A stretch of DNA of 64,000 nucleotides from Cinnamomum chago (lineage: Eukaryota > Streptophyta > Magnoliopsida > Laurales > Lauraceae). The stretch is from assembly GCA_038049695.1 (NCBI GenBank), contig CP142451.1, positions 36,903,501 through 36,967,500 on the forward strand, read 5' to 3'. This document shows, piece after piece, positions 1,666-64,000 of this stretch. Made by a program: the position numbers and the translations under genes. Each line of letters begins with the position of its first letter. The first letter of the stretch is position 1. The notes beneath the pieces were generated by a model. That model was not told the DNA's origin. It saw only the letters and a list, made by a program, of their open reading frames with translations, and ran no database searches.

Positions 1666-1688
1666 TATAGTTGATATCGACTATCATC
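1666..1688. repeat. Single outlying copy of the GTCGATATCGAC-type palindrome
   Basis: The stretch TATAGTTGATATCGACTATCAT is matched almost exactly by a member of the palindrome cluster near 6004-6024, over 4 kb away. No other copy is seen between 1688 and 5728. This is the basis for placing the left side of the MULE here. Confidence 0.6.
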
Positions 1689-12781: not shown

Positions 12782-13439
12782 TGTCACGCCCCCGAACCGA
12801 AACCTCAGGGGCGGGAGATGGGATTTAAGCATAAATATATTTTTCTTCTCCCAAGATCCGCGTGTGTGAAGACAACACATTCTGAATATTTTGCGGAAGC
12901 ATTTGTGGCGTTGCGACCCGAAGTCCGTGGCCATCGGATTCCGCGTCGCACTCAACCTTTAGCCCATAGCTATTATATCAAGAATCATACCAGACTGGAG
13001 TAACCATCACAATAATTTACAGAGCTGACAGTAACAGGATATTGCATTCCCAAATATGTTCAAGTTACAATTATCAATGTACATTAATTAAGAATCCCAA
13101 GAAAAGGCTAATAAAAGCCATACAACAATAAGCTATAAACTACTACCCAAATGTGACGTAGCTCCGATGTCAAGCTCAATGTCTACATGACATAGCCGAC
13201 AAACTAACCTGCAAAGCATGGCTCTACAGCCAACAAAAGCACTCAACTCGGGGCGAAGAAATCTGAACCTGAGTACCAAAAGTAGTGGGTCAGACACGAC
13301 GGTCTGGCAGGTGGATGAAAAGATCACAAATATAGCGAATAATAATACAAATGATAAATCATGCTATTTGCTCAAAATGCCGCGTATAATTAAACGGGTG
13401 AAAACTCAGGAATCTCGGATAAAACATGTATTCTTTTCA

Positions 13440-14150
13440 AACATGGTTAAAACAGGAAGATCTAATAAAGCATATGTTCATTTACATCATCTATAAAAGC
13501 ATAGATATTTGACAATCGGGTGTTCGTGGAAAACATGTATGAATATGGAAGTTTGGCAAAACCACGTTCATTTAAACATATTTCAAAGCATGGATCTTCA
13601 ACAGATCGGGCATTCCTTTAAAACAGGTATAACATAGGGATCTGGCAAAACGCGTGTCATTTAAAACATATTCTCAAGCATGGATGTTATAGCTCGGGTA
13701 ATCATTTGAAACAGGTATAAACATAGAAACCTGACAAAACACGTGTCATTTAAAACATATTCCAAAACAGGGATATTTAACAAATCGGGTATTCATTTGA
13801 AACCGGTATAAACATAGTGACCTGGCAGAACAAGTGTCATTTAAAACAAAGCACGAATGTTTAGCAATCCGGGTATTCACTTAAAACATGTATAAACATC
13901 GGGATCTAACAAAACGAAAAACGCATTCCAAAGCATGGACATTTAATAACTCGGGTATTCATTTTAAAAACAGGTATAAACATAGATATCTGACAAACCA
14001 AATGTCCTTTAAAACAAGGCACGGATATTTAACAATTCGAGTATTCCTTTAAAACACGTGTAATCATATAAATCTAGCAAAATCATTGATCGTATGGAAC
14101 ATGTGTAAAAGTACGGGTATTCACCCAACCGGCATTCATGTAAAACATGT
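13440..14150 (+). repeat. Degenerate 82-90-bp tandem repeats inside the LTR
   Basis: At least seven units start with AAGCATGGATATTTAACAAATCGGG-type sequence at 13497, 13586, 13676, 13765, 13849, 13931 and 14016. Each continues with TATTCATTT-AAAACA-GGTATAAACATAG and a CTGACAAAAC segment. Spacing is 89, 90, 89, 84, 82 and 85 bp. The units differ far more from each other than the same unit differs between LTR copies, so this satellite is much older than the array. It recurs in every LTR. Confidence 0.88.
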
Positions 14151-14430
14151 ACGTGTGCAAAGGACATAAAACAATATAATAGTGACTGAATTTACAATAG
14201 AGAGCATTAACACTTATCTAAATAACAACTTTCATAAAAGCAATGAATCATTTATCTGAAAACAAGTAAGCAATATAAACCATGTCGGGTGTCCAAGGAA
14301 TCGGGAACTGGCAAGATGGCAATCACAAGAAGCTAAGTCCTCTATCACCGAAGTGACAAGAGCGGGACGTTGGTCTCAGTCACACAAGGTGAGGAGACTC
14401 AACGTAAATCATATATACAATAATAAATAT

Positions 14431-14535
14431 ACGGGAACGGGAACGGGACCACGGTAGCGAACCGGGTATCGGGACGGGGCCACGGCAATAACCGGGTATC
14501 GGGATCCAAACTGCAGCTGGCGGGACGGGAGAGGG
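14431..14535 (+). repeat. G-rich CGGGAACGGGA / ACCGGGTATCGGGA block in the LTR
   Basis: Short GGG runs recur: CGGGAACGGGAACGGGACC, then two copies of ACCGGGTATCGGGA 38 bp apart, then CGGGACGGGAG. The G-rich strand is the plus strand, antisense to the element. Quadruplex formation is possible but loop lengths vary. It recurs in every LTR. Confidence 0.6.
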
Positions 14536-14620
14536 ATTTCCAAGTCGGTGGATCAAACCGACAAGGTATCCAAGCTTAGTGATGCCGACTCATAGGTCAA
14601 AACCAATCGAGACATATGCA

Positions 14621-14860
14621 AGTAAATCAAGTACAGTAAGTAAACGGGGGTGCTCAAGGGCACACTGTCACTTCATATCGGGCAATACATTTCGGGACAA
14701 ATAACTGTTACTAGTGTAACTTCAATGCTTTCGGGGAAACAAGTAAATCAAGTACAATAAATAAACGGGTAAAACGGGGTGCTCAAGGGCACACTTTCAT
14801 ATCATGTGATGCAAATCTCGGGAAATGAGGAAATATAATGCACTATACCATTTCGGGAAG
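14621..14860 (+). repeat. Imperfect tandem pair, period 121 bp, in the LTR
   Basis: AGTAAATCAAGTACAGTAAG with GTGCTCAAGGGCACACTGTCA after 14621 recurs from 14742 as AGTAAATCAAGTACAATAAA with GTGCTCAAGGGCACACTTTCA. The pair recurs in every LTR of the array. Confidence 0.8.
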
Positions 14861-15460
14861 AATATTGATTGCAAGATCTATTTAAGTGAATAGGGGTCCC
14901 GTATGTCGATTATAATAATTACTTGGTACTCCTTGAGTTTGAAGACATTCCGGGCTCCTTATGCACTTTTACTATTTTCACAACTTAAAATGAGCTTATG
15001 TGTAATACTAGATGTTACAATAGCAAGAATCAAGATTATAAACGGTCCATCCTAGGCATCACATTAATCCGGAAACATCGAGCAACCTACTCAGTCATCG
15101 AAAGGACTAGAATTAGCGATAACCAAGGAAATAGACTTGTGTTTAGATATAAAGAAGATATCGCGTCGTTCCATCCCGTTCAAGATTGAAATGGATTAAC
15201 TCCGATGCCACCGAGCCAACCGTGAGGCGTGTCGGCTCAAGACATTCTCACACATGGTTCAAACAGTCCAAAGAGGGTAGCCAGGGTCCCACCTAAAACC
15301 GAGAATTAGTGCCTAGATCATCACCATTCTTTCTTTTAGTTCCCTAGTCTTAGAGACCTTAGATTAGGGTACAATTGGTCTTAACACTACGGTATACACC
15401 TCTAGGACTCATAGAAAGCCCAAAGGTTTCCAAAAAAACACAATACCAAATTTCACTTCG

Positions 15461-15592
15461 GACCGATCGATCGGTCGAAATTTCTGTACCAGAAATGTAC
15501 AGGGTCCGATCGATCGGCCCAAAATGGCTTACAGTTACTGACAGTCCGATCGATCGGCCTGTATGTCCGATCGATCGGACCTGGGTACAGCA
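15461..15592. repeat. Cluster of four CCGATCGATCGG palindromes in the LTR
   Basis: Four copies lie within 130 bp; the first (GACCGATCGATCGGTC) and last (GTCCGATCGATCGGAC) are perfect 16-bp palindromes. LTRs 2-5 have five copies because 12 bp of the second motif are duplicated, and this alone explains the 6027/6039 period difference. The motif holds three CpG sites, so it would be a strong methylation target. Equivalent clusters lie in each LTR, the next near 21488-21620. Confidence 0.9.
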
Positions 15593-15736
15593 GGTCCGGG
15601 AAAGCTGATTTTTCTTCCTCTTTTTCCTTTCCTTCCAACATATAATCAACCACAAAGAACCATAAACAAGATGGTTTAAATACATGTTTCCAAGACAATA
15701 ACATGAGCTAAAGAGCTCCTCATTTCAAGTTCCTCT

Positions 15737-15763
15737 CTTTCCATTCTTTCCATTCTTTCCATT
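15737..15763 (+). repeat. CTTTCCATT x3 microsatellite in the LTR
   Basis: Three exact 9-bp units. The copy number is the same in every LTR I read. Confidence 0.85.
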
Positions 15764-16963
15764 CACAATTAATCACAAGGTGGAGAAAACTCATTCATGT
15801 GAAATCATTTGAAATCTTGACACTATGATACATACATTTCCAAGAGATTAACAAGGGAGAAATAACTCATCAATAAGCACATCTTGAAATCAATATTAAT
15901 CATATTAAAGACAACTATTAAAATCACCAAAACCATTAATGAATCAAGATTTTCTCACAAAACATGTTAATAATCAAAACAATCCATTCATCCACTTGCC
16001 TTTGACTCTAATCAAGCAAATCAAGCTCCTAATCCCTTCTCAAGCTCAAGATCCACAATCTCTACAAAAACCCCCAAAACAACCCTAAAATGGGTTACAC
16101 AATGAAATGACAATGAAACCATTCAATAATCAAGGTGGAGCTTCTCTAAGGCTAGAAGATTACAAATCTAGAAGATGGGACGAATCACTTACTTTGATGA
16201 CCTTCAAATGAGAAGAACAAGCTCAAGGAGGGTTTCAATGTTGGTGGATTTCTCTTCTAATGGCATCTATGTAAAGCTTGCAAGGTGGAGAAGAGAATGG
16301 TGATCTCCATTTCTTGAGTGATGATCTCTTGGAGTGGCTTGGAGATGAAGAAGCAAGGAGAAGAAGAAGAACACAAGGGAAAACCCTAGGTTGCTGGTTT
16401 GGGCTGGAAAATGGAGAATGAAGTGAATGAAGGAGATGGGTTCCTCTTATGTTAACAAAGAAGGTTGGGTCCCACAACTTAAAGAACTTGGGTGGCTGAA
16501 ATCATCTAATTCGGGACCTCGGATGGATTCGACGAAGAAGGAAGAAATGATCGTCGAAATATCTAGTTTCCAAAAAGTGTATGTTTCACGGATTTCGAAA
16601 ATATCGAGTTTTGGGTACAGATTTGGTGTGAAAAGACTGTTTTGCCCTCAAGGCCAAGAAATCGGTTTTTGGGTTCTCAAATGGATATGGGATCAACATG
16701 AAAGTTGTAGGATTCCTCAAGATGAATGCAACGGGCCAAAAACACGATACGAAACCAATCGGGAAAATCTCACAAGAAAATGCAAAGCCGAAAAGGGAAC
16801 CCCCAAAGGGCCCCACAAGCTACCAAAGCACTCAAAAGCCCAGAACTAGAAGAAAACTCATTCTAGCTCGCAAACTCAACCCAACAACTACTAATCCCAC
16901 TAAAAGAACTAATCCACAAATAAAACAACACTAATCCAAGAGATTAGGGGTCGGGTTCTCACA

Positions 16964-16980
16964 TCCTCCCCCCCTTAGAA
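16964..16980 (-). promoter_or_regulatory. Polypurine tract (PPT) of internal segment 1
   Basis: On the minus strand the sequence reads CTAAGGGGGGGAGGA directly before the TGTGAGAACC start of the LTR. This is the expected place for the plus-strand primer of reverse transcription. The same tract occurs in all eight internal segments. Confidence 0.85.
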
Positions 16981-18593
16981 CATTTGGTCCTCCAAATGAA
17001 CTAAACAACTCAAAAACAAGTGGGGACATCAATCCCACACTTCGAAAACAAAACCTCAAACGACTGCTCCAAACTGGTCCTCTCGGAAGCACTGGACTCA
17101 CTGGGTCATCCTCGCTGTAGAACTCTTCGGTCAACTATCAACAGTTGTCAGACATTCCACCATTGGCTCAAAACTGTTACTGCTCTACCAATCTGGCTGC
17201 TCAAGGAATTTGTCATCTCTGACTCCTTCTAAGTTCCACCAAGTCTCTCGCTTCTAGCCACTCTGATGCCGAAAATTCTTGGAACAATTCTGTCGACTTC
17301 ATCACAACTGTCGAAGCTAGGGTCTCATATCAATTGCACAATCTTCAATGTGAATTCTTGCTGGCTCTAACTATTTCTGCTAGGTGCTTTTGATCCATTG
17401 TACCGCAATCAGTCTCTAACATAATTATGCTTGTCCTTTCACCATTCTTCAACATTTGAAGCTCTAACTGTTTCTGTTCGTTGCTCTTGATCCACTGCAC
17501 AATAGTCGGTCTCTGCTGGTCTTGGACATGTCTTTACCTTGAAATATTGTCTTATTCTTCTATCTACCCTCAGCTTCGGAAAAATTGGTGACGCTGAGTA
17601 TTACCTGATATCTCTTACTTTAGGCAATGTCGTCCAGTCCTCGGTGCTCTTCTGTCATCTCTGTCAAAGTTGTCGAAATTAAGTCTCCTGCCAATGCACG
17701 ATCTTCGAGGTGAATGACTTGGAAATCTGTCATTCCTTCATGCGCCAAGCTGATTCAATCAAATATTTGAACGGTTCTCTGAACACTTCACTCATTTCTA
17801 TCTGCTCGTTGAAAACACAATGTTCACACCTCTGTAAGTTTCCAGCTCTATCTTGACCCGTCCACACTTTAACTGTCATGTTACTCCACTTGTCCAAACT
17901 TCGTGAGGTGTGCTTCTGACAAACTCATTCTTCTCTGAATCCCTTCAACTGTCACTGTCCATAGGTGATGATTCTCCTGCTCGCATATGTACTCTGCCCA
18001 AACCGATGTTCTACAAGTCGGTAAAGTCCACTAAATCTTCTCTATCATGTGATCAAGTAATAATCAATTCCACATATAACTCTCTACAGTGCTGCTGAAA
18101 ACTAATTTCCTATGCTTTTAACCATCCACTGACACATCCTGCCGAGTTGACTCACCATTATAACTTCAACTTGTTAAACCTCATCCAACAATTCTACATC
18201 ATAAGCTCATCAATGCTCGAGAAATTTCTAACTTTTCACATCTTTTGAAGCTGCACCACTGAAAATCACCTCAAATCTCATAAAGTCCACCACTTATCCG
18301 GCCTATGGAGTCTTCTGACTTAGGAAAATAATCCAAGTTTATCCAAAAATCCACACTTACTTGCCTGACGAATCCTCTGACGGTACACGATCAACTGTAA
18401 TTGGGTCTCCATATGCTGCTCACATTCCTTGCTGACGAACAATTGGTCACCAATTCCTTCTAAAGCTCCATCTGCGACATCCAAAAGCTGAAAATTCTGC
18501 CAAAGCCCTTCGAGAAACACATGCTAAGTCCACAAAACTCTGACTCTCTGGCGCGAAAACAAGGCAAAGGAACTAAATGTGGGTGCGGAGACA

Positions 18594-18700
18594 CTAAATT
18601 CTCCCCCACTAGAAAAGAATTTGGTCCCCCAAATTCACAAACAACAAGGACAAGAAAAGGAGACAAAGATAGTCTCCCCCACTAGAAGAAAAACAGGCAC
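18594..18700 (-). repeat. Two extra PPT-like tracts near the PBS end
   Basis: CTCCCCCACTAGAA occurs twice (near 18600 and 18675). The first is followed by GAATTTGGTCCCCCAAATTCAC, resembling ACATTTGGTCCTCCAAATGAAC next to the true PPT at 16980. The two ends of the internal segment thus share an old, imperfect direct repeat about 1.6 kb apart. It is present in every internal segment. Confidence 0.7.
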
Positions 18701-18793
18701 AAACTCACAAAAACAACAACTAAAGAAAAGAAAACGAGTCCTCACCACACGTCTTAAGGTTCCTAGAGTGTTTTATTTCCTAGAAACCTGCCC

Positions 18794-18805
18794 GCTCTGA
18801 TACCA
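18794..18805 (-). promoter_or_regulatory. Primer binding site for initiator-Met tRNA
   Basis: The minus strand reads TGGTATCAGAGC, three bases (GAC) after the LTR end TGACA. It is complementary to the 3' end of plant initiator-Met tRNA, the commonest primer of plant LTR retrotransposons. It fixes the orientation of the whole array. Corresponding sites precede each later LTR. Confidence 0.92.
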
Positions 18806-18808
18806 GTC

Positions 18809-23002: not shown

Positions 23003-24847
23003 TCCTCCCCCCCTTAGAACATTTGGTCCTCCAAATGAACTAAACAACTCAAAAACAAGTGGGGACATCAATCCCACACTTCGAAAACAAAACCTCAAAC
23101 GACTGCTCCAAACTGGTCCTCTCGGAAGCACTGGACTCACTGGGTCATCCTCGCTGTAGAACTCTTCGGTCAACTATCAACAGTTGTCAGACATTCCACC
23201 ATTGGCTCAAAACTGTTACTGCTCTACCAATCTGGCTGCTCAAGGAATTTGTCATCTCTGACTCCTTCTAAGTTCCACCAAGTCTCTCGCTTCTAGCCAC
23301 TCTGATGCCGAAAATTCTTGGAACAATTCTGTCGACTTCATCACAACTGTCGAAGCTAGGGTCTCATATCAATTGCACAATCTTCAATGTGAATTCTTGC
23401 TGGCTCTAACTATTTCTGCTAGGTGCTTTTGATCCATTGTACCGCAATCAGTCTCTAACATAATTATGCTTGTCCTTTCACCATTCTTCAACATTTGAAG
23501 CTCTAACTGTTTCTGTTCGTTGCTCTTGATCCACTGCACAATAGTCGGTCTCTGCTGGTCTTGGACATGTCTTTACCTTGAAATATTGTCTTATTCTTCT
23601 ATCTACCCTCAGCTTCGGAAAAATTGGTGACGCTGAGTATTACCTGATATCTCTTACTTTAGGCAATGTCGTCCAGTCCTCGGTGCTCTTCTGTCATCTC
23701 TGTCAAAGTTGTCGAAATTAAGTCTCCTGCCAATGCACGATCTTCGAGGTGAATGACTTGGAAATCTGTCATTCCTTCATGCGCCAAGCTGATTCAATCA
23801 AATATTTGAACGGTTCTCTGAACACTTCACTCATTTCTATCTGCTCGTTGAAAACACAATGTTCACACCTCTGTAAGTTTCCAGCTCTATCTTGACCCGT
23901 CCACACTTTAACTGTCATGTTACTCCACTTGTCCAAACTTCGTGAGGTGTGCTTCTGACAAACTCATTCTTCTCTGAATCCCTTCAACTGTCACTGTCCA
24001 TAGGTGATGATTCTCCTGCTCGCATATGTACTCTGCCCAAACCGATGTTCTACAAGTCGGTAAAGTCCACTAAATCTTCTCTATCATGTGATCAAGTAAT
24101 AATCAATTCCACATATAACTCTCTACAGTGCTGCTGAAAACTAATTTCCTATGCTTTTAACCATCCACTGACACATCCTGCCGAGTTGACTCACCATTAT
24201 AACTTCAACTTGTTAAACCTCATCCAACAATTCTACATCATAAGCTCATCAATGCTCGAGAAATTTCTAACTTTTCACATCTTTTGAAGCTGCACCACTG
24301 AAAATCACCTCAAATCTCATAAAGTCCACCACTTATCCGGCCTATGGAGTCTTCTGACTTAGGAAAATAATCCAAGTTTATCCAAAAATCCACACTTACT
24401 TGCCTGACGAATCCTCTGACGGTACACGATCAACTGTAATTGGGTCTCCATATGCTGCTCACATTCCTTGCTGACGAACAATTGGTCACCAATTCCTTCT
24501 AAAGCTCCATCTGCGACATCCAAAAGCTGAAAATTCTGCCAAAGCCCTTCGAGAAACACATGCTAAGTCCACAAAACTCTGACTCTCTGGCGCGAAAACA
24601 AGGCAAAGGAACTAAATGTGGGTGCGGAGACACTAAATTCTCCCCCACTAGAAAAGAATTTGGTCCCCCAAATTCACAAACAACAAGGACAAGAAAAGGA
24701 GACAAAGATAGTCTCCCCCACTAGAAGAAAAACAGGCACAAACTCACAAAAACAACAACTAAAGAAAAGAAAACGAGTCCTCACCACACGTCTTAAGGTT
24801 CCTAGAGTGTTTTATTTCCTAGAAACCTGCCCGCTCTGATACCAGTC
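23003..24847 (-). mobile_element. Internal segment 2 (1845 bp)
   Basis: Same structure and length as segment 1, and I saw no differences from segments 1 and 3 at the sites compared. Confidence 0.9.
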
Positions 24848-27800
24848 TGTCACGCCCCCGAACCGAAACCTCGGGGGCGGGAGATGGGATTTAAGCATAA
24901 ATATATTTTTCTTCTCCCAAGATCCGCGTGTGTGAAGACAACACATTCTGAATATTTTGCGGAAGCATTTGTGGCGTTGCGACCCGAAGTCCGTGGCCAT
25001 CGGATTCCGCGTCGCACTCAACCTTTAGCCCATAGCTATTATATCAAGAATCATACCAGACTGGAGTAACCATCACAATAATTTACAGAGCTGACAGTAA
25101 CAGGATATTGCATTCCCAAATATGTTCAAGTTACAATTATCAATGTACATTAATTAAGAATCCCAAGAAAAGGCTAATAAAAGCCATACAACAATAAGCT
25201 ATAAACTACTACCCAAATGTGACGTAGCTCCGATGTCAAGCTCAATGTCTACATGACATAGCCGACAAACTAACCTGCAAAGCATGGCTCTACAGCCAAC
25301 AAAAGCACTCAACTCGGGGCGAAGAAATCTGAACCTGAGTACCAAAAGTAGTGGGTCAGACACGACGGTCTGGCAGGTGGATGAAAAGATCACAAATATA
25401 GCGAATAATAATACAAATGATAAATCATGCTATTTGCTCAAAATGCCGCGTATAATTAAACGGGTGAAAACTCAGGAATCTCGGATAAAACATGTATTCT
25501 TTTCAAACATGGTTAAAACAGGAAGATCTAATAAAGCATATGTTCATTTACATCATCTATAAAAGCATAGATATTTGACAATCGGGTGTTCGTGGAAAAC
25601 ATGTATGAATATGGAAGTTTGGCAAAACCACGTTCATTTAAACATATTTCAAAGCATGGATCTTCAACAGATCGGGCATTCCTTTAAAACAGGTATAACA
25701 TAGGGATCTGGCAAAACGCGTGTCATTTAAAACATATTCTCAAGCATGGATGTTATAGCTCGGGTAATCATTTGAAACAGGTATAAACATAGAAACCTGA
25801 CAAAACACGTGTCATTTAAAACATATTCCAAAACAGGGATATTTAACAAATCGGGTATTCATTTGAAACCGGTATAAACATAGTGACCTGGCAGAACAAG
25901 TGTCATTTAAAACAAAGCACGAATGTTTAGCAATCCGGGTATTCACTTAAAACATGTATAAACATCGGGATCTAACAAAACGAAAAACGCATTCCAAAGC
26001 ATGGACATTTAATAACTCGGGTATTCATTTTAAAAATAGGTATAAACATAGATATCTGACAAACCAAATGTCCTTTAAAACAAGGCACGGATATTTAACA
26101 ATTCGAGTATTCCTTTAAAACACGTGTAATCATATAAATCTAGCAAAATCATTGATCGTATGGAACATGTGTAAAAGTACGGGTATTCACCCAACCGGCA
26201 TTCATGTAAAACATGTACGTGTGCAAAGGACATAAAACAATATAATAGTGACTGAATTTACAATAGAGAGCATTAACACTTATCTAAATAACAACTTTCA
26301 TAAAAGCAATGAATCATTTATCTGAAAACAAGTAAGCAATATAAACCATGTCGGGTGTCCAAGGAATCGGGAACTGGCAAGATGGCAATCACAAGAAGCT
26401 AAGTCCTCTATCACCGAAGTGACAAGAGCGGGACGTTGGTCTCAGTCACACAAGGTGAGGAGACTCAACGTAAATCATATATACAATAATAAATATACGG
26501 GAACGGGAACGGGACCACGGTAGCGAACCGGGTATCGGGACGGGGCCACGGCAATAACCGGGTATCGGGATCCAAACTGCAGCTGGCGGGACGGGAGAGG
26601 GATTTCCAAGTCGGTGGATCAAACCGACAAGGTATCCAAGCTTAGTGATGCCGACTCATAGGTCAAAACCAATCGAGACATATGCAAGTAAATCAAGTAC
26701 AGTAAGTAAACGGGGGTGCTCAAGGGCACACTGTCACTTCATATCGGGCAATACATTTCGGGACAAATAACTGTTACTAGTGTAACTTCAATGCTTTCGG
26801 GGAAACAAGTAAATCAAGTACAATAAATAAACGGGTAAAACGGGGTGCTCAAGGGCACACTTTCATATCATGTGATGCAAATCTCGGGAAATGAGGAAAT
26901 ATAATGCACTATACCATTTCGGGAAGAATATTGATTGCAAGATCTATTTAAGTGAATAGGGGTCCCGTATGTCGATTATAATAATTACTTGGTACTCCTT
27001 GAGTTTGAAGACATTCCGGGCTCCTTATGCACTTTTACTATTTTCACAACTTAAAATGAGCTTATGTGTAATACTAGATGTTACAATAGCAAGAATCAAG
27101 ATTATAAACGGTCCATCCTAGGCATCACATTAATCCGGAAACATCGAGCAACCTACTCAGTCATCGAAAGGAATAGAATTAGCGATAACCAAGGAAATAG
27201 ACTTGTGTTTAGATATAAAGAAGATATCGCGTCGTTCCATCCCGTTCAAGATTGAAATGGATTAACTCCGATGCCACCGAGCCAACCGTGAGGCGTGTCG
27301 GCTCAAGACATTCTCACACATGGTTCAAACAGTCCAAAGAGGGTAGCCAGGGTCCCACCTAAAACCGAGAATTAGTGCCTAGATCATCACCATTCTTTCT
27401 TTTAGTTCCCTAGTCTTAGAGACCTTAGATTAGGGTACAATTGGTCTTAACACTACGGTATACACCTCTAGGACTCATAGAAAGCCCAAAGGTTTCCAAA
27501 AAAACACAATACCAAATTTCACTTCGGACCGATCGATCGGTCGAAATTTCTGTACCAGAAATGTACAGGGTCCGATCGATCGGCCGATCGATCGGCCCAA
27601 AATGGCTTACAGTTACTGACAGTCCGATCGATCGGCCTGTATGTCCGATCGATCGGACCTGGGTACAGCAGGTCCGGGAAAGCTGATTTTTCTTCCTCTT
27701 TTTCCTTTCCTTCCAACATATAATCAACCACAAAGAACCATAAACAAGATGGTTTAAATACATGTTTCCAAGACAATAACATGAGCTAAAGAGCTCCTCA

Positions 27801-29041
27801 TTTCAAGTTCCCCTCTTTCCATTCTTTCCATTCTTTCCATTCACAATTAATCACAAGGTGGAGAAAACTCATTCATGTGAAATCATTTGAAATCTTGACA
27901 CTATGATACATACATTTCCAAGAGATTAACAAGGGAGAAATAACTCATCAATAAGCACATCTTGAAATCAATATTAATCATATTAAAGACAACTATTAAA
28001 ATCACCAAAACCATTAATGAATCAAGATTTTCTCACAAAACATGTTAATAATCAAAACAATCCATTCATCCACTTGCCTTTGACTCTAATCAAGCAAATC
28101 AAGCTCCTAATCCCTTCTCAAGCTCAAGATCCACAATCTCTACAAAAACCCCCAAAACAACCCTAAAATGGGTTACACAATGAAATGACAATGAAACCAT
28201 TCAATAATCAAGGTGGAGCTTCTCTAAGGCTAGAAGATTACAAATCTAGAAGATGGGACGAATCACTTACTTTGATGACCTTCAAATGAGAAGAACAAGC
28301 TCAAGGAGGGTTTCAATGTTGGTGGATTTCTCTTCTAATGGCATCTATGTAAAGCTTGCAAGGTGGAGAAGAGAATGGTGATCTCCATTTCTTGAGTGAT
28401 GATCTCTTGGAGTGGCTTGGAGATGAAGAAGCAAGGAGAAGAAGAAGAACACAAGGGAAAACCCTAGGTTGCTGGTTTGGGCTGGAAAATGGAGAATGAA
28501 GTGAATGAAGGAGATGGGTTCCTCTTATGTTAACAAAGAAGGTTGGGTCCCACAACTTAAAGAACTTGGGTGGCTGAAATCATCTAATTCGGGACCTCGG
28601 ATGGATTCGACGAAGAAGGAAGAAATGATCGTCGAAATATCTAGTTTCCAAAAAGTGTATGTTTCACGGATTTCGAAAATATCGAGTTTTGGGTACAGAT
28701 TTGGTGTGAAAAGACTGTTTTGCCCTCAAGGCCAAGAAATCGGTTTTTGGGTTCTCAAATGGATATGGGATCAACATGAAAGTTGTAGGATTCCTCAAGA
28801 TGAATGCAACGGGCCAAAAACACGATACGAAACCAATCGGGAAAATCTCACAAGAAAATGCAAAGCCGAAAAGGGAACCCCCAAAGGGCCCCACAAGCTA
28901 CCAAAGCACTCAAAAGCCCAGAACTAGAAGAAAACTCATTCTAGCTCGCAAACTCAACCCAACAACTACTAATCCCACTAAAAGAACTAATCCACAAATA
29001 AAACAACACTAATCCAAGAGATTAGGGGTCGGGTTCTCACA
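24848..29041 (-). repeat. LTR 3 (4194 bp)
   Basis: Has the 12-bp duplication and the variants shared only with LTR 2. Confidence 0.93.
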
Positions 29042-51900: not shown

Positions 51901-53173
51901 CAAGACAATAACATGAGCTAAATAGCTCCTCATTTCAAGTTCCTCTCTTTCCATTCTTTCCATTCTTTCCATTCACAATTAATCACAAGGTGGAGAAAAC
52001 TCATTCATGTGAAATCATTTGAAATCTTGACACTATGATACATACATTTCCAAGAGATTAACAAGGGAGAAATAACTCATCAATAAGCACATCTTGAAAT
52101 CAATATTAATCATATTAAAGAAAACTATTAAAATCACCAAAACCATTAATGAATCAAGATTTTCTCACAAAACATGTTAATAATCAAAACAATCCATTCA
52201 TCCACTTGCCTTTGACTCTAATCAAGCAAATCAAGCTCCTAATCCCTTCTCAAGCTCAAGATCCACAATCTCTACAAAAACCCCCAAAACAACCCTAAAA
52301 TGGGTTACACAATGAAATGACAATGAAACCATTCAATAATCAAGGTGGAGCTTCTCTAAGGCTAGAAGATTACAAATCTAGAAGATGGGACGAATCACTT
52401 ACTTTGATGACCTTCAAATGAGAAGAACAAGCTCAAGGAGGGTTTCAATGTTGGTGGATTTCTCTTCTAATGGCATCTATGTAAAGCTTGCAAGGTGGAG
52501 AAGAGAATGGTGATCTCCATTTCTTGAGTGATGATCTCTTGGAGTGGCTTGGAGATGAAGAAGCAAGGAGAAGAAGAAGAACACAAGGGAAAACCCTAGG
52601 TTGCTGGTTTGGGCTGGAAAATGGAGAATGAAGTGAATGAAGGAGATGGGTTCCTCTTATGTTAACAAAGAAGGTTGGGTCCCACAACTTAAAGAACTTG
52701 GGTGGCTGAAATCATCTAATTCGGGACCTCGGATGGATTCGACGAAGAAGGAAGAAATGATCGTCGAAATATCTAGTTTCCAAAAAGTGTATGTTTCACG
52801 GATTTCGAAAATATCGAGTTTTGGGTACAGATTTGGTGTGAAAAGACTGTTTTGCCCTCAAGGCCAAGAAATCGGTTTTTGGGTTCTCAAATGGATATGG
52901 GATCAACATGAAAGTTGTAGGATTCCTCAAGATGAATGCAACGGGCCAAAAACACGATACGAAACCAATCGGGAAAATCTCACAAGAAAATGCAAAGCCG
53001 AAAAGGGAACCCCCAAAGGGCCCCACAAGCTACCAAAGCACTCAAAAGCCCAGAACTAGAAGAAAACTCATTCTAGCTCGCAAACTCAACCCAACAACTA
53101 CTAATCCCACTAAAAGAACTAATCCACAAATAAAACAACACTAATCCAAGAGATTAGGGGTCGGGTTCTCACA
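48992..53173 (-). repeat. LTR 7 (4182 bp), mosaic
   Basis: The left part matches LTR 6 (to at least 50348); from about 52121 rightward it matches LTR 8. This is a second switch point inside an LTR. Confidence 0.92.
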
Positions 53174-55018
53174 TCCTCCCCCCCTTAGAACATTTGGTCC
53201 TCCAAATGAACTAAACAACTCAAAAACAAGTGGGGACATCAATCCCACACTTCGAAAACAAAACCTCAAACGACTGCTCCAAACTGGTCCTCTCGGAAGC
53301 ACTGGACTCACTGGGTCATCCTCGCTGTAGAACTCTTCGGTCAACTATCAACAGTTGTCAGACATTCCACCATTGGCTCAAAACTGTTACTGCTCTACCA
53401 ATCTGGCTGCTCAAGGAATTTGTCATCTCTGACTCCTTCTAAGTTCCACCAAGTCTCTCGCTTCTAGCCACTCTGATGCCGAAAATTCTTGGAACAATTC
53501 TGTCGACTTCATCACAACTGTCGAAGCTAGGGTCTCATATCAATTGCACAATCTTCAATGTGAATTCTTGCTGGCTCTAACTATTTCTGCTAGGTGCTTT
53601 TGATCCATTGTACCGCAATCAGTCTCTAACATAATTATGCTTGTCCTTTCACCATTCTTCAACATTTGAAGCTCTAACTGTTTCTGTTCGTTGCTCTTGA
53701 TCCACTGCACAATAGTCGGTCTCTGCTGGTCTTGGACATGTCTTTACCTTGAAATATTGTCTTATTCTTCTATCTACCCTCAGCTTCGGAAAAATTGGTG
53801 ACGCTGAGTATTACCTGATATCTCTTACTTTAGGCAATGTCGTCCAGTCCTCGGTGCTCTTCTGTCATCTCTGTCAAAGTTGTCGAAATTAAGTCTCCTG
53901 CCAATGCACGATCTTCGAGGTGAATGACTTGGAAATCTGTCATTCCTTCATGCGCCAGGCTGATTCAATCAAATATTTGAACGGTTCTCTGAACACTTCA
54001 CTCATTTCTATCTGCTCGTTGAAAACACAATGTTCACACCTCTGTAAGTTTCCAGCTCTATCTTGACCCGTCCACACTTTAACTGTCATGTTACTCCACT
54101 TGTCCAAACTTCGTGAGGTGTGCTTCTGACAAACTCATTCTTCTCTGAATCCCTTCAACTGTCACTGTCCATAGGTGATGATTCTCCTGCTCGCATATGT
54201 ACTCTGCCCAAACCGATGTTCTACAAGTCGGTAAAGTCCACTAAATCTTCTCTATCATGTGATCAAGTAATAATCAATTCCACATATAACTCTCTACAGT
54301 GCTGCTGAAAACTAATTTCCTATGCTTTTAACCATCCACTGACACATCCTGCGGAGTTGACTCACCATTATAACTTCAACTTGTTAAACCTCATCCAACA
54401 ATTCTACATCATAAGCTCATCAATGCTCGAGAAATTTCTAACTTTTCACATCTTTTGAAGCTGCACCACTGAAAATCACCTCAAATCTCATAAAGTCCAC
54501 CACTTATCCGGCCTATGGAGTCTTCTGACTTAGGAAAATAATCCAAGTTTATCCAAAAATCCACACTTACTTGCCTGACGAATCCTCTGACGGTACACGA
54601 TCAACTGTAATTGGGTCTCCATATGCTGCTCACATTCCTTGCTGACGAACAATTGGTCACCAATTCCTTCTAAAGCTCCATCTGCGACATCCAAAAGCTG
54701 AAAATTCTGCCAAAGCCCTTCGAGAAACACATGCTAAGTCCACAAAACTCTGACTCTCTGGCGCGAAAACAAGGCAAAGGAACTAAATGTGGGTGCGGAG
54801 ACACTAAATTCTCCCCCACTAGAAAAGAATTTGGTCCCCCAAATTCACAAACAACAAGGACAAGAAAAGGAGACAAAGATAGTCTCCCCCACTAGAAGAA
54901 AAACAGGCACAAACTCACAAAAACAACAACTAAAGAAAAGAAAACGAGTCCTCACCACACGTCTTAAGGTTCCTAGAGTGTTTTATTTCCTAGAAACCTG
55001 CCCTCTCTGATACCAGTC
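53174..55018 (-). mobile_element. Internal segment 7 (1845 bp)
   Basis: Shares three variants with segment 8 only, while at two other sites it agrees with segments 1-3 rather than 4-6. Confidence 0.9.
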
Positions 55019-58000
55019 TGTCACGCCCCCGAACCGAAACCTCGGGGGCGGGAGATGGGATTTAAGCATAAATATATTTTTCTTCTCCCAAGATCCGCGT
55101 GTGTGAAGACAACACATTCTGAATATTTTGCGGAAGCATTTGTGGCGTTGCGACCCGAAGTCCGTGGCCATCGGATTCCGCGTCGCACTCAACCTTTAGC
55201 CCATAGCTATTATATCAAGAATCATACCAGACTGGAGTAACCATCACAATAATTTACAGAGCTGACAGTAACAGGATATTGCATTCCCAAATATGTTCAA
55301 GTTACAATTATCAATGTACATTAATTAAGAATCCCAAGAAAAGGCTAATAAAAGCCATACAACAATAAGCTATAAACTACTACCCAAATGTGACGTAGCT
55401 CCGATGTCAAGCTCAATGTCTACATGACATAGCCGACAAACTAACCTGCAAAGCATGGCTCTACAGCCAACAAAAGCACTCAACTCGGGGCGAAGAAATC
55501 TGAACCTGAGTACCAAAAGTAGTGGGTCAGACACGACGGTCTGGCAGGTGGATGAAAAGATCACAAATATAGCGAATAATAATACAAATGATAAATCATG
55601 CTATTTGCTCAAAATGCTGCGTATAATTAAACGGGTGAAAACTCAGGAATCTCGGATAAAACATGTATTCTTTTCAAACATGGTTAAAACAGGAAGATCT
55701 AATAAAGCATATGTTCATTTACATCATCTATAAAAGCATAGATATTTGACAATCGGGTGTTCGTGGAAAACATGTATGAATATGGAAGTTTGGCAAAACC
55801 ACGTTCATTTAAACATATTTCAAAGCATGGATCTTCAACAGATCGGGCATTCCTTTAAAACAGGTATAACATAGGGATCTGGCAAAACGCGTGTCATTTA
55901 AAACATATTCTCAAGCATGGATGTTATAGCTCGGGTAATCATTTGAAACAGGTATAAACATAGAAACCTGACAAAACACGTGTCATTTAAAACATATTCC
56001 AAAACAGGGATATTTAACAAATCGGGTATTCATTTGAAACCGGTATAAACATAGTGACCTGGCAGAACAAGTGTCATTTAAAACAAAGCACGAATGTTTA
56101 GCAATCCGGGTATTCACTTAAAACATGTATAAACATCGGGATCTAACAAAACGAAAAACGCATTCCAAAGCATGGACATTTAATAACTCGGGTATTCATT
56201 TTAAAAACAGGTATAAACATAGATATCTGACAAACCAAATGTCCTTTAAAACAAGGCACGGATATTTAACAATTCGAGTATTCCTTTAAAACACGTGTAA
56301 TCATATAAATCTAGCAAAATCATTGATCGTATGGAACATGTGTAAAAGTACGGGTATTCACCCAACCGGCATTCATGTAAAACATGTACGTGTGCAAAGG
56401 ACATAAAACAATATAATAGTGACTGAATTTACAATAGAGAGCATTAACACTTATCTAAATAACAACTTTCATAAAAGCAATGAATCATTTATCTGAAAAC
56501 AAGTAAGCAATATAAACCATGTCGGGTGTCCAAGGAATCGGGAACTGGCAAGATGGCAATCACAAGAAGCTAAGTCCTCTATCACCGAAGTGACAAGAGC
56601 GGGACGTTGGTCTCAGTCACACAAGGTGAGGAGACTCAACGTAAATCATATATACAATAATAAATATACGGGAACGGGAACGGGACCACGGTAGCGAACC
56701 GGGTATCGGGACGGGACCACGGCAATAACCGGGTATCGGGATCCAAACTGCAGCTGGCGGGACGGGAGAGGGATTTCCAAGTCGGTGGATCAAACCGACA
56801 AGGTATCCAAGCTTAGTGATGCCGACTCATAGGTCAAAACCAATCGAGACATATGCAAGTAAATCAAGTACAGTAAGTAAACGGGGGTGCTCAAGGGCAC
56901 ACTGTCACTTCATATCGGGCAATACATTTCGGGACAAATAACTGTTACTAGTGTAACTTCAATGCTTTCGGGGAAACAAGTAAATCAAGTACAATAAATA
57001 AACGGGTAAAACGGGGTGCTCAAGGGCACACTTTCATATCATGTGATGCAAATCTCGGGAAATGAGGAAATATAATGCACTATACCATTTCGGGAAGAAT
57101 ATTGATTGCAAGATCTATTTAAGTGAATAGGGGTCCCGTATGTCGATTATAATAATTACTTGGTACTCCTTGAGTTTGAAGACATTCCGGGCTCCTTATG
57201 CACTTTTACTATTTTCACAACTTAAAATGAGCTTATGTGTAATACTAGATGTTACAATAGCAAGAATCAAGATTATAAACGGTCCATCCTAGGCATCACA
57301 TTAATCCGGAAACATCGAGCAACCTACTCAGTCATCGAAAGGAATAGAATTAGCGATAACCAAGGAAATAGACTTGTGTTTAGATATAAAGAAGATATCG
57401 CGTCGTTCCATCCCGTTCAAGATTGAAATGGATTAACTCCGATGCCACCGAGCCAACCGTGAGGCGTGTCGGCTCAAGACATTCTCACACATGGTTCAAA
57501 CAGTCCAAAGAGGGTAGCCAGGGTCCCACCTAAATCCGAGAATTAGTGCCTAGATCATCACCATTCTTTCTTTTAGTTCCCTAGTCTTAGAGACCTTAGA
57601 TTAGGGTACAATTGGTCTTAACACTAAGGTATACACCTCTAGGACTCATAGAAAGCCCAAAGGTTTCCAAAAAAACACAATACCAAATTTCACTTCGGAC
57701 CGATCGATCGGTCGAAATTTCTGTACCAGAAATGTACAGGGTCCGATCGATCGGCCCAAAAAGGCTTACAGTTACTGACAGTCCGATCGATCGGCCTGTA
57801 TGTCCGATCGATCGGACCTGGGTACAGCAGGTCCGGGAAAGCTGATTTTTCTTCCTCTTTTTCCTTTCCTTCCAACATATAATCAACCACAAAGAACCAT
57901 AAACAAGATGGTTTAAATACATGTTTCCAAGACAATAACATGAGCTAAATAGCTCCTCATTTCAAGTTCCTCTCTTTCCATTCTTTCCATTCTTTCCATT

Positions 58001-59200
58001 CACAATTAATCACAAGGTGGAGAAAACTCATTCATGTGAAATCATTTGAAATCTTGACACTATGATACATACATTTCCAAGAGATTAACAAGGGAGAAAT
58101 AACTCATCAATAAGCACATCTTGAAATCAATATTAATCATATTAAAGAAAACTATTAAAATCACCAAAACCATTAATGAATCAAGATTTTCTCACAAAAC
58201 ATGTTAATAATCAAAACAATCCATTCATCCACTTGCCTTTGACTCTAATCAAGCAAATCAAGCTCCTAATCCCTTCTCAAGCTCAAGATCCACAATCTCT
58301 ACAAAAACCCCCAAAACAACCCTAAAATGGGTTACACAATGAAATGACAATGAAACCATTCAATAATCAAGGTGGAGCTTCTCTAAGGCTAGAAGATTAC
58401 AAATCTAGAAGATGGGACGAATCACTTACTTTGATGACCTTCAAATGAGAAGAACAAGCTCAAGGAGGGTTTCAATGTTGGTGGATTTCTCTTCTAATGG
58501 CATCTATGTAAAGCTTGCAAGGTGGAGAAGAGAATGGTGATCTCCATTTCTTGAGTGATGATCTCTTGGAGTGGCTTGGAGATGAAGAAGCAAGGAGAAG
58601 AAGAAGAACACAAGGGAAAACCCTAGGTTGCTGGTTTGGGCTGGAAAATGGAGAATGAAGTGAATGAAGGAGATGGGTTCCTCTTATGTTAACAAAGAAG
58701 GTTGGGTCCCACAACTTAAAGAACTTGGGTGGCTGAAATCATCTAATTCGGGACCTCGGATGGATTCGACGAAGAAGGAAGAAATGATCGTCGAAATATC
58801 TAGTTTCCAAAAAGTGTATGTTTCACGGATTTCGAAAATATCGAGTTTTGGGTACAGATTTGGTGTGAAAAGACTGTTTTGCCCTCAAGGCCAAGAAATC
58901 GGTTTTTGGGTTCTCAAATGGATATGGGATCAACATGAAAGTTGTAGGATTCCTCAAGATGAATGCAACGGGCCAAAAACACGATACGAAACCAATCGGG
59001 AAAATCTCACAAGAAAATGCAAAGCCGAAAAGGGAACCCCCAAAGGGCCCCACAAGCTACCAAAGCACTCAAAAGCCCAGAACTAGAAGAAAACTCATTC
59101 TAGCTCGCAAACTCAACCCAACAACTACTAATCCCACTAAAAGAACTAATCCACAAATAAAACAACACTAATCCAAGAGATTAGGGGTCGGGTTCTCACA
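55019..59200 (-). repeat. LTR 8 (4182 bp)
   Basis: Matches LTR 9 over the part visible there and LTR 7 in the right half. Confidence 0.93.
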
Positions 59201-61045
59201 TCCTCCCCCCCTTAGAACATTTGGTCCTCCAAATGAACTAAACAACTCAAAAACAAGTGGGGACATCAATCCCACACTTCGAAAACAAAACCTCAAACGA
59301 CTGCTCCAAACTGGTCCTCTCGGAAGCACTGGACTCACTGGGTCATCCTCGCTGTAGAACTCTTCGGTCAACTATCAACAGTTGTCAGACATTCCACCAT
59401 TGGCTCAAAACTGTTACTGCTCTACCAATCTGGCTGCTCAAGGAATTTGTCATCTCTGACTCCTTCTAAGTTCCACCAAGTCTCTCGCTTCTAGCCACTC
59501 TGATGCCGAAAATTCTTGGAACAATTCTGTCGACTTCATCACAACTGTCGAAGCTAGGGTCTCATATCAATTGCACAATCTTCAATGTGAATTCTTGCTG
59601 GCTCTAACTATTTCTGCTAGGTGCTTTTGATCCATTGTACCGCAATCAGTCTCTAACATAATTATGCTTGTCCTTTCACCATTCTTCAACATTTGAAGCT
59701 CTAACTGTTTCTGTTCGTTGCTCTTGATCCACTGCACAATAGTCGGTCTCTGCTGGTCTTGGACATGTCTTTACCTTGAAATATTGTCTTATTCTTCTAT
59801 CTACCCTCAGCTTCGGAAAAATTGGTGACGCTGAGTATTACCTGATATCTCTTACTTTAGGCAATGTCGTCCAGTCCTCGGTGCTCTTCTGTCATCTCTG
59901 TCAAAGTTGTCGAAATTAAGTCTCCTGCCAATGCACGATCTTCGAGGTGAATGACTTGGAAATCTGTCATTCCTTCATGCGCCAGGCTGATTCAATCAAA
60001 TATTTGAACGGTTCTCTGAACACTTCACTCATTTCTATCTGCTCGTTGAAAACACAATGTTCACACCTCTGTAAGTTTCCAGCTCTATCTTGACCCGTCC
60101 ACACTTTAACTGTCATGTTACTCCACTTGTCCAAACTTCGTGAGGTGTGCTTCTGACAAACTCATTCTTCTCTGAATCCCTTCAACTGTCACTGTCCATA
60201 GGTGATGATTCTCCTGCTCGCATATGTACTCTGCCCAAACCGATGTTCTACAAGTCGGTAAAGTCCACTAAATCTTCTCTATCATGTGATCAAGTAATAA
60301 TCAATTCCACATATAACTCTCTACAGTGCTGCTGAAAACTAATTTCCTATGCTTTTAACCATCCACTGACACATCCTGCGGAGTTGACTCACCATTATAA
60401 CTTCAACTTGTTAAACCTCATCCAACAATTCTACATCATAAGCTCATCAATGCTCGAGAAATTTCTAACTTTTCACATCTTTTGAAGCTGCACCACTGAA
60501 AATCACCTCAAATCTCATAAAGTCCACCACTTATCCGGCCTATGGAGTCTTCTGACTTAGGAAAATAATCCAAGTTTATCCAAAAATCCACACTTACTTG
60601 CCTGACGAATCCTCTGACGGTACACGATCAACTGTAATTGGGTCTCCATATGCTGCTCACATTCCTTGCTGACGAACAATTGGTCACCAATTCCTTCTAA
60701 AGCTCCATCTGCGACATCCAAAAGCTGAAAATTCTGCCAAAGCCCTTCGAGAAACACATGCTAAGTCCACAAAACTCTGACTCTCTGGCGCGAAAACAAG
60801 GCAAAGGAACTAAATGTGGGTGCGGAGACACTAAATTCTCCCCCACTAGAAAAGAATTTGGTCCCCCAAATTCACAAACAACAAGGACAAGAAAAGGAGA
60901 CAAAGATAGTCTCCCCCACTAGAAGAAAAACAGGCACAAACTCACAAAAACAACAACTAAAGAAAAGAAAACGAGTCCTCACCACACGTCTTAAGGTTCC
61001 TAGAGTGTTTTATTTCCTAGAAACCTGCCCTCTCTGATACCAGTC
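59201..61045 (-). mobile_element. Internal segment 8 (1845 bp)
   Basis: Same variants as segment 7; I saw no difference between them at the sites compared. Confidence 0.9.
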
Positions 61046-64000
61046 TGTCACGCCCCCGAACCGAAACCTCGGGGGCGGGAGATGGGATTTAAGCATAAAT
61101 ATATTTTTCTTCTCCCAAGATCCGCGTGTGTGAAGACAACACATTCTGAATATTTTGCGGAAGCATTTGTGGCGTTGCGACCCGAAGTCCGTGGCCATCG
61201 GATTCCGCGTCGCACTCAACCTTTAGCCCATAGCTATTATATCAAGAATCATACCAGACTGGAGTAACCATCACAATAATTTACAGAGCTGACAGTAACA
61301 GGATATTGCATTCCCAAATATGTTCAAGTTACAATTATCAATGTACATTAATTAAGAATCCCAAGAAAAGGCTAATAAAAGCCATACAACAATAAGCTAT
61401 AAACTACTACCCAAATGTGACGTAGCTCCGATGTCAAGCTCAATGTCTACATGACATAGCCGACAAACTAACCTGCAAAGCATGGCTCTACAGCCAACAA
61501 AAGCACTCAACTCGGGGCGAAGAAATCTGAACCTGAGTACCAAAAGTAGTGGGTCAGACACGACGGTCTGGCAGGTGGATGAAAAGATCACAAATATAGC
61601 GAATAATAATACAAATGATAAATCATGCTATTTGCTCAAAATGCTGCGTATAATTAAACGGGTGAAAACTCAGGAATCTCGGATAAAACATGTATTCTTT
61701 TCAAACATGGTTAAAACAGGAAGATCTAATAAAGCATATGTTCATTTACATCATCTATAAAAGCATAGATATTTGACAATCGGGTGTTCGTGGAAAACAT
61801 GTATGAATATGGAAGTTTGGCAAAACCACGTTCATTTAAACATATTTCAAAGCATGGATCTTCAACAGATCGGGCATTCCTTTAAAACAGGTATAACATA
61901 GGGATCTGGCAAAACGCGTGTCATTTAAAACATATTCTCAAGCATGGATGTTATAGCTCGGGTAATCATTTGAAACAGGTATAAACATAGAAACCTGACA
62001 AAACACGTGTCATTTAAAACATATTCCAAAACAGGGATATTTAACAAATCGGGTATTCATTTGAAACCGGTATAAACATAGTGACCTGGCAGAACAAGTG
62101 TCATTTAAAACAAAGCACGAATGTTTAGCAATCCGGGTATTCACTTAAAACATGTATAAACATCGGGATCTAACAAAACGAAAAACGCATTCCAAAGCAT
62201 GGACATTTAATAACTCGGGTATTCATTTTAAAAACAGGTATAAACATAGATATCTGACAAACCAAATGTCCTTTAAAACAAGGCACGGATATTTAACAAT
62301 TCGAGTATTCCTTTAAAACACGTGTAATCATATAAATCTAGCAAAATCATTGATCGTATGGAACATGTGTAAAAGTACGGGTATTCACCCAACCGGCATT
62401 CATGTAAAACATGTACGTGTGCAAAGGACATAAAACAATATAATAGTGACTGAATTTACAATAGAGAGCATTAACACTTATCTAAATAACAACTTTCATA
62501 AAAGCAATGAATCATTTATCTGAAAACAAGTAAGCAATATAAACCATGTCGGGTGTCCAAGGAATCGGGAACTGGCAAGATGGCAATCACAAGAAGCTAA
62601 GTCCTCTATCACCGAAGTGACAAGAGCGGGACGTTGGTCTCAGTCACACAAGGTGAGGAGACTCAACGTAAATCATATATACAATAATAAATATACGGGA
62701 ACGGGAACGGGACCACGGTAGCGAACCGGGTATCGGGACGGGACCACGGCAATAACCGGGTATCGGGATCCAAACTGCAGCTGGCGGGACGGGAGAGGGA
62801 TTTCCAAGTCGGTGGATCAAACCGACAAGGTATCCAAGCTTAGTGATGCCGACTCATAGGTCAAAACCAATCGAGACATATGCAAGTAAATCAAGTACAG
62901 TAAGTAAACGGGGGTGCTCAAGGGCACACTGTCACTTCATATCGGGCAATACATTTCGGGACAAATAACTGTTACTAGTGTAACTTCAATGCTTTCGGGG
63001 AAACAAGTAAATCAAGTACAATAAATAAACGGGTAAAACGGGGTGCTCAAGGGCACACTTTCATATCATGTGATGCAAATCTCGGGAAATGAGGAAATAT
63101 AATGCACTATACCATTTCGGGAAGAATATTGATTGCAAGATCTATTTAAGTGAATAGGGGTCCCGTATGTCGATTATAATAATTACTTGGTACTCCTTGA
63201 GTTTGAAGACATTCCGGGCTCCTTATGCACTTTTACTATTTTCACAACTTAAAATGAGCTTATGTGTAATACTAGATGTTACAATAGCAAGAATCAAGAT
63301 TATAAACGGTCCATCCTAGGCATCACATTAATCCGGAAACATCGAGCAACCTACTCAGTCATCGAAAGGAATAGAATTAGCGATAACCAAGGAAATAGAC
63401 TTGTGTTTAGATATAAAGAAGATATCGCGTCGTTCCATCCCGTTCAAGATTGAAATGGATTAACTCCGATGCCACCGAGCCAACCGTGAGGCGTGTCGGC
63501 TCAAGACATTCTCACACATGGTTCAAACAGTCCAAAGAGGGTAGCCAGGGTCCCACCTAAATCCGAGAATTAGTGCCTAGATCATCACCATTCTTTCTTT
63601 TAGTTCCCTAGTCTTAGAGACCTTAGATTAGGGTACAATTGGTCTTAACACTAAGGTATACACCTCTAGGACTCATAGAAAGCCCAAAGGTTTCCAAAAA
63701 AACACAATACCAAATTTCACTTCGGACCGATCGATCGGTCGAAATTTCTGTACCAGAAATGTACAGGGTCCGATCGATCGGCCCAAAAAGGCTTACAGTT
63801 ACTGACAGTCCGATCGATCGGCCTGTATGTCCGATCGATCGGACCTGGGTACAGCAGGTCCGGGAAAGCTGATTTTTCTTCCTCTTTTTCCTTTCCTTCC
63901 AACATATAATCAACCACAAAGAACCATAAACAAGATGGTTTAAATACATGTTTCCAAGACAATAACATGAGCTAAATAGCTCCTCATTTCAAGTTCCTCT
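61046..64000 (-). repeat. LTR 9, cut by the window end
   Basis: The first 2955 bp are visible, up to the CTTTCCATT region. It has a single 12-bp motif and agrees with LTR 8 at every variable site seen. The array therefore continues beyond the window. Confidence 0.93.

What the first reader, a model, noticed from the sequence alone, without database searches (positions are those of the whole stretch)
12782..64000. A >51-kb tandem array built from one LTR retrotransposon with shared LTRs
LTR and internal segments alternate nine and eight times, in one orientation, with nothing between them. Ordinary nested or clustered insertions would each bring two LTRs and a target duplication. Here the unit is LTR plus internal, so the retrotransposon has become a 6-kb macrosatellite. 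LTR-internal-LTR-internal-LTR structures of two or three units are known from unequal recombination; eight or more nearly identical units is unusual. It may be an early stage in the birth of a satellite DNA.
Basis: seen in the sequence. Interest (0 to 1): 0.9.

Follow-up and report, generated by a model that had tools for sequence, protein, structure and literature searches.

The report
Retrotransposon tandem array sharing LTRs
A non-coding LTR retrotransposon in what looks like plant DNA is repeated head to tail at least eight times with shared terminal repeats, apparently grown by stepwise exchange between neighbouring copies; it is a long example of a known kind of structure.

Summary
From 12782 to the window end, nine LTRs (4182 or 4194 bp; the ninth cut by the window edge at 2955 bp) alternate with eight 1845-bp internal segments, all in one orientation, nothing between them. 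The element lies on the minus strand, with TG...CA LTR ends, a TGGTATCAGAGC primer-binding site and a purine tract. None of 39 open frames scanned reaches a Pfam cut-off or resembles a retrotransposon domain, and Rfam finds nothing: a LARD-like, non-autonomous element. Copies differ at 23 sites; the eight complete copies are at least 99.69% identical by substitutions.

The added result concerns mechanism. At 17 of 17 sites where each allele is in two or more copies, the rarer allele fills one unbroken run of neighbours. Only 8 of 40320 copy orders are as orderly. Four-gamete conflicts indicate mosaic copies. This favours stepwise local exchange or conversion over an untouched one-shot concatemer; how the first extra unit arose stays open.

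Tandem LTR-sharing arrays are already described in plants, so this is a long member of a known kind. Reads, right end, species and genome-wide abundance could not be examined.

The parts
12782..16963 (-). LTR copy 1, 4182 bp, outermost (3' LTR in element orientation), intact to its last base against unrelated flank
16964..18808 (-). Internal segment 1, 1845 bp, no recognisable coding domain
16964..16976 (-). Polypurine tract (AAGGGGGGGAGGA on the element strand) directly before the LTR; same at 8 of 8 printed junctions
18794..18805 (-). Primer-binding site TGGTATCAGAGC, 3 nt from the LTR end; same at 6 of 8 printed junctions, last base A in internals 7 and 8
   Evidence: same PBS string quoted for Cassandra in PMC7215508
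18809..23002 (-). LTR copy 2, 4194 bp (carries the 12-bp insertion)
23003..24847 (-). Internal segment 2
24848..29041 (-). LTR copy 3, 4194 bp
29042..30886 (-). Internal segment 3
30887..35080 (-). LTR copy 4, 4194 bp
35081..36925 (-). Internal segment 4
36926..41119 (-). LTR copy 5, 4194 bp
41120..42964 (-). Internal segment 5
42965..47146 (-). LTR copy 6, 4182 bp
47147..48991 (-). Internal segment 6
48992..53173 (-). LTR copy 7, 4182 bp; mosaic: shares sites 59 and 1359 with copy 6, site 3131 with copy 8
53174..55018 (-). Internal segment 7
55019..59200 (-). LTR copy 8, 4182 bp
59201..61045 (-). Internal segment 8
61046..64000 (-). LTR copy 9, cut by the window end (2955 bp seen)
12777..12781 (.). 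GGTAA, the 5 bp next to the outer LTR: candidate target-site duplication, partner beyond the window
   Evidence: untested

Best explanation
A non-autonomous, LARD-like LTR retrotransposon (4.2-kb LTRs, 1.85-kb interior without recognisable coding) inserted once on the minus strand. Recombination between its LTRs, out of register between sister chromatids or homologues, then produced LTR-internal-LTR-internal-LTR forms. Once more than one unit existed, further out-of-register exchange or gene conversion between neighbours raised the number to at least eight units and kept them at least 99.69% identical. Shown here: the anatomy, the exact LTR end at the left border, the near-identity, the clustering of shared variants in adjacent copies, and four-gamete conflicts between copies. 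Inferred: a single founding insertion, LTR-LTR recombination as the first step, and whether crossover or conversion dominates. A time depth of roughly 50-120 thousand years follows from a recalled plant rate of 1.3e-8 and is a minimum, because exchange erases differences.
For: PPT/LTR junctions are identical at 8 of 8 printed; LTR/PBS junctions at 6 of 8, the other two differing by one PBS base. No foreign sequence lies between units. The left border is an exact LTR terminus; LTR 1 and internal 1 have no similarity to positions 1-12781 at E 0.01. At 17 of 23 variant sites each allele is in two or more copies, and at 17 of these 17 the rarer allele forms one unbroken run of adjacent copies. Total allele changes along the array are 25; 8 of 40320 orders do as well or better, mean 60.5. 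Unit difference rises with distance in the array, r=0.753, reached by 56 of 40320 orders. 23 of 253 site pairs show all four allele combinations, 9 of 153 within the LTR. Exact matches at one-unit lag run 7623 bp, more than a unit and cut by the window end, and 6038 bp, one base short of a unit. LTR and internal diverge about alike, mean 0.167% and 0.139%.
Against: The right end is outside the window, so a target duplication around the whole array, which would show one insertion, could not be tested. No reads were available. The 12-bp indel conflicts with sites 115 and 20 bp away but could be recurrent slippage in CCGATCGATCGG repeats; it takes part in 7 of the 23 four-gamete pairs, so those may not be exchange. 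For internals alone the distance trend is weak: r=0.381, reached by 1968 of 40320 orders. Transitions:transversions of 10:11 is lower than I would expect for methylated plant repeats; unexplained, few sites. The LTR is only slightly more diverged than the internal, so nothing positively marks a two-LTR stage before expansion.
Confidence: 0.68

Rival explanations
1. The array entered the site as a ready-made concatemer: rolling-circle copying of a one-LTR circle, or a tandem transcript read from such a circle, then integration.
For: The unit is exactly LTR+internal, as a one-LTR circle would give; divergence of LTR and internal is nearly equal. PMC11899658 discusses a one-LTR-circle, tandem-transcript route and leaves the origin open.
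Against: A one-shot concatemer left alone would carry independent mutations; instead 17 of 23 sites are shared by runs of neighbouring copies. Later exchange could have overwritten the signal, so this rival survives as the origin, not as the whole history.
Confidence: 0.17
2. Assembly artefact: a shorter array, or two haplotypes, strung together by the assembler.
For: Long near-identical repeats are the classic failure case (general knowledge); no reads could be checked and no genome is held.
Against: Copies carry distinct, ordered variants. Differences between adjacent whole units are spread (5, 1, 8, 4, 5, 8, 2 substitutions) with no single join. The only indel found is one 12-bp event. The copy number could still be wrong.
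Confidence: 0.12
3. Several separate insertions of the same family side by side or nested.
For: LTR retrotransposons often cluster (general knowledge).
Against: Each would bring two LTRs and a target duplication; 8 of 8 internal segments are bounded directly by one LTR on each side.
Confidence: 0.02

Closest known systems
Tandem LTR-RT structures in rice, Arabidopsis, almond, cotton (Morales-Diaz et al. 2025, PMC11899658; abstract and outline, Results and Discussion sections, and passages of Methods seen)
   Same: Alternating LTR and internal segments, shared LTRs; origin by recombination or by tandem insertion left open.
   Different: Unit numbers of the other cases were not in the sections that I saw.
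Cassandra TRIM long arrays (PMC7215508; abstract part and passages seen)
   Same: Non-coding element, LTR as unit with internal as spacer, at least 12 copies reported, same PBS string.
   Different: Cassandra LTRs carry 5S rRNA sequence; here Rfam finds none and the LTR is 4.2 kb. The authors say they observe no differences between units; here ordered differences exist.
Wukong TRIM arrays in maize (PMC4528315; passages seen)
   Same: Multiple LTRs usually in one orientation, unequal crossing-over proposed.
   Different: A TRIM, that is a small element; at most seven LTRs reported in the passage seen.
Sobo satellite of wild potato (seen only as cited in PMC3648361)
   Same: Multi-kb satellite sharing similarity with the LTRs of a gypsy element: 4.7-kb monomer, about 360 kb.
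   Different: Not described in that passage as an intact LTR-internal unit; much longer array.
CRM1TR/CRM4TR of maize (PMC3648361; passages seen)
   Same: Tandem repeats derived from LTR plus untranslated region; growth by conversion proposed, with unequal exchange or circles not excluded.
   Different: Made of part of the LTR and part of the UTR; here the whole LTR+internal unit is kept.
Kangaroo endogenous retrovirus megasatellite (seen only as a reference title and a discussion sentence in PMC11899658)
   Same: Provirus structure retained in a tandem satellite.
   Different: Animal, centromeric, endogenous retrovirus.

Membership tests
Tandem LTR-retrotransposon with shared LTRs | LTR and internal alternate in one orientation, starting and ending with an LTR | tested here: met
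   9 LTRs and 8 internals, left end an exact LTR terminus; the right end is not visible, so 'ending with an LTR' is untested
Tandem LTR-retrotransposon with shared LTRs | One 5-bp target duplication around the whole array | not testable with these tools
   Only the left flank GGTAA (12777-12781) is in the window; no genome held
LTR retrotransposon (order) | LTR termini, primer-binding site, polypurine tract | tested here: met
   PBS equals the one quoted
LARD (large retrotransposon derivative) | Long LTRs and an internal region without coding capacity | tested here: met
   LTR 4182/4194 bp. 39 distinct ORFs of unit 1 scanned (21 of 21 of at least 45 aa overlapping the internal, 20 of 20 of at least 60 aa overlapping the LTR, 2 in both): 0 reach a Pfam cut-off; 10 have weak matches (best E 0.0082), none to a retrotransposon family. 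The interior, 1.85 kb, is short for a LARD (recalled)
LARD (large retrotransposon derivative) | Dispersed family with conserved internal domain | not testable with these tools
   No host genome; junction pattern found 0 matches in the viral and prokaryote collections, which are not plant collections
Cassandra / TRIM | 5S rRNA sequence in a short LTR | tested here: not met
   Rfam 0 matches at gathering threshold; LTR 4.2 kb
Ty3/gypsy Tekay lineage | Lineage-specific polyprotein domains | tested here: inconclusive
   No domains found to classify; similarity of LTR ends to Tekay is recalled only
Satellite DNA | Long homogeneous tandem array with concerted evolution | tested here: inconclusive
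   Homogeneity and exchange supported over 51 kb; full length, other loci and heterochromatin not tested

The most novel reading that the evidence does not exclude
The window catches the edge of a nascent satellite: a non-coding LARD-like element amplified well beyond the visible eight units, while the LTR ends, primer-binding site and purine tract are still kept at the junctions. Its ordered variants would let individual exchange events be read off, and the units could still be mobile substrates (tandem transcripts, one-LTR circles).
Probability: 0.25. Interest if true: 0.62.

Novelty: new member of a known kind. Interest (0 to 1): 0.42.

Why it matters
Whether LTR tandems arise by tandem insertion or by recombination after insertion is stated as open in PMC11899658. 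This array has enough units and enough ordered variants to indicate that at least its later growth or homogenisation went step by step between neighbours. It also suggests that a survey with a 40,000-bp locus limit, as used there, would miss cases of this length.

Tried and rejected
Ribosomal or other RNA gene repeat: rejected, 0 Rfam matches at gathering threshold and 0 tRNAs.

Cassandra-type TRIM array: rejected, no 5S match and LTRs of 4.2 kb.

Recognisable gag-pol in the unit: none. 39 distinct ORFs of unit 1 were scanned apart, not read through (two of them only to E 0.1, the rest to E 1). Ten gave weak matches to unrelated families, best E 0.0082, all under the Pfam cut-offs. Shorter ORFs and decayed frames were not tested.

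Separate or nested insertions: rejected by junctions.

A sharp haplotype join: not seen, not excluded.

Relatives in public collections: the 26-letter LTR/PBS junction pattern gave 0 matches in viral contigs and 0 in genome contigs. These hold viral and prokaryote DNA, so this says nothing about plants. No other collection search was made.

Own genome: not held.

Paper PMC5932611 (McGurk and Barbash): not held, so not read.
Full report
Observation. The window is 64000 bases without N. From 12782 to its end it has a period of 6027 or 6039 bp. Using the LTR edge motifs I placed nine LTR starts and eight internal segments. Internals are all 1845 bp. Complete LTRs are 4182 bp (copies 1, 6, 7, 8) or 4194 bp (copies 2-5), and the ninth is cut at 2955 bp by the window end. 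There is no other sequence between them. The count nine/eight is therefore a lower bound.

Identity of the element. On the minus strand each printed LTR/PBS junction (8) reads LTR end ...GGGGGCGTGACA, three bases, then the primer-binding site TGGTATCAGAGC (6 of 8; TGGTATCAGAGA in internals 7 and 8). Each of the 8 printed PPT/LTR junctions reads AAGGGGGGGAGGA followed by the LTR start TGTGAGAACC. The same PBS string is quoted for Cassandra in PMC7215508 (passage); that it pairs with initiator tRNA-Met is recalled. I listed the open frames of unit 1: 21 of at least 45 aa overlap the internal and 20 of at least 60 aa overlap the LTR, two being in both lists. All 39 were scanned against Pfam. None reached a curated cut-off. 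Ten had weak matches to unrelated families (best E 0.0082, DUF3051), none to a retrotransposon family. Rfam gave no match and ARAGORN no tRNA. With long LTRs and a short interior without recognisable coding it resembles a LARD, though the interior is short for one (recalled). The Tekay-like look of its ends is recollection, not a test.

Host. The left flank has a decayed MuDR/MULE transposase (PF03108, PF10551). No genome is held for the window. A plant host is my inference from the PBS and general look; the species is unknown.

Variation. Aligning LTR copies and internal copies separately gave 23 variable sites, 18 in the LTR (one a 12-bp indel) and 5 in the internal (letters rechecked in the window for the 22 substitution sites, 0 mismatches). 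Mean pairwise substitution difference among eight complete copies is 7.0 in the LTR (0.167%) and 2.57 in the internal (0.139%), with maxima 13 and 5. At six sites one copy alone differs; these were left out of the order test. At the other 17 the rarer allele forms a single unbroken run of neighbours at 17 of 17. Along the array there are 25 allele changes; of all 40320 orders of copies 1-8, 8 have 25 or fewer (the observed order and its mirror necessarily among them), mean 60.5, minimum 24. Collapsing linked sites to 11 distinct patterns gives the same 8 of 40320. Unit difference against array distance gives r=0.753, reached by 56 of 40320 orders; LTR alone r=0.731, 158 orders; internal alone r=0.381, 1968 orders, which is weak.

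Exchange. All four allele combinations occur in 23 of 253 site pairs, 9 of 153 within the LTR (pairs with the one three-allele site or with single-copy variants cannot score). LTR copy 7 is the clearest mosaic: it shares sites 59 and 1359 with copy 6, but site 3131 with copy 8. Seven of the 23 conflicts involve the 12-bp indel, which lies in short CCGATCGATCGG repeats and may have recurred. Exact matches at one-unit lag run for 7623 bp (50351-57973, cut by the window end) and 6038 bp (16498-22535, one base short of a unit). These features fit repeated local duplication or conversion between neighbours. They do not tell crossover from conversion, and do not show how the first extra unit arose.

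Left border. The array begins with an exact LTR terminus; neither LTR 1 nor internal 1 has similarity to positions 1-12781 at E 0.01. This is what a canonical insertion leaves. Integration of a random circle would more often start inside a unit (inference). The 5 bp beside it, GGTAA, are a candidate target duplication whose partner is off the window.

Age. With the rate 1.3e-8 per site per year (recalled), mean unit divergence corresponds to about 61 thousand years and the largest pair to about 102 (LTR alone 64 and 120; internal alone 54 and 104). Exchange erases differences, so these are minima for the insertion.

Artefact. Ordered variants, spread-out steps between adjacent units (5, 1, 8, 4, 5, 8, 2) and the finding of a single indel, of 12 bp, speak for a real array, but no reads were available. 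I put 0.12 on artefact.

Literature. Eight searches of the PMC library, of which searches listed only the top 20. PMC11899658 (abstract, Results and Discussion, Methods passages) reports tandem LTR elements in rice, Arabidopsis, almond and cotton, enriched for Tekay in rice, with origin unresolved and a 40,000-bp locus limit. PMC7215508 (passages) reports Cassandra arrays of at least 12 copies. PMC4528315 (passages) reports up to seven LTRs in Wukong. PMC3648361 (passages) treats CRM repeats and cites the 360-kb Sobo satellite. PMC7004042 (passages) reports nine Lathyrus satellites grown from short tandem arrays inside LTR elements, a different route. In those listings and passages I saw no plant array of this element size and number with ordered variants, but listings were capped, supplements were not seen and most subscription papers are not held, so no claim of a first is made.

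Verdict. It is a long member of a known kind, with a variant pattern that favours stepwise growth or homogenisation between neighbours. Interest 0.42.

Noticed in passing
3543-4800 (+): Decayed MuDR/MULE transposase: PF03108 and PF10551 in separate ORFs, with a 141-bp tandem repeat at 3279-3687.
   Followed up: partly
8938-9169 and 12057-12288: A 232-bp direct repeat, 95% identical, 3119 bp apart, in the left flank; could be ends of another element or a local duplication.
   Followed up: partly
5728-6131: Clustered palindrome-like repeats of ATAGTCGATATCGACTAT.
   Followed up: no
13478-14075 and the corresponding place in the other LTR copies: Degenerate 84-91-bp sub-repeats inside the nine LTR copies: a tandem repeat nested in a tandem repeat.
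   Followed up: no
12782-64000: Transitions to transversions among 21 biallelic substitutions are 10:11, lower than I would expect for methylated plant repeats; CpG observed/expected is 0.81 in LTR 1 against 0.55 in internal 1 and 0.53 in the flank.
   Followed up: no
55004 and 61031: The last base of the 12-nt primer-binding site differs (A instead of C on the element strand) in internals 7 and 8 only.
   Followed up: no
900-1421 (-): A 173-aa open frame with a hydrophobic, signal-peptide-like start (my reading); no Pfam match at E 0.1.
   Followed up: partly
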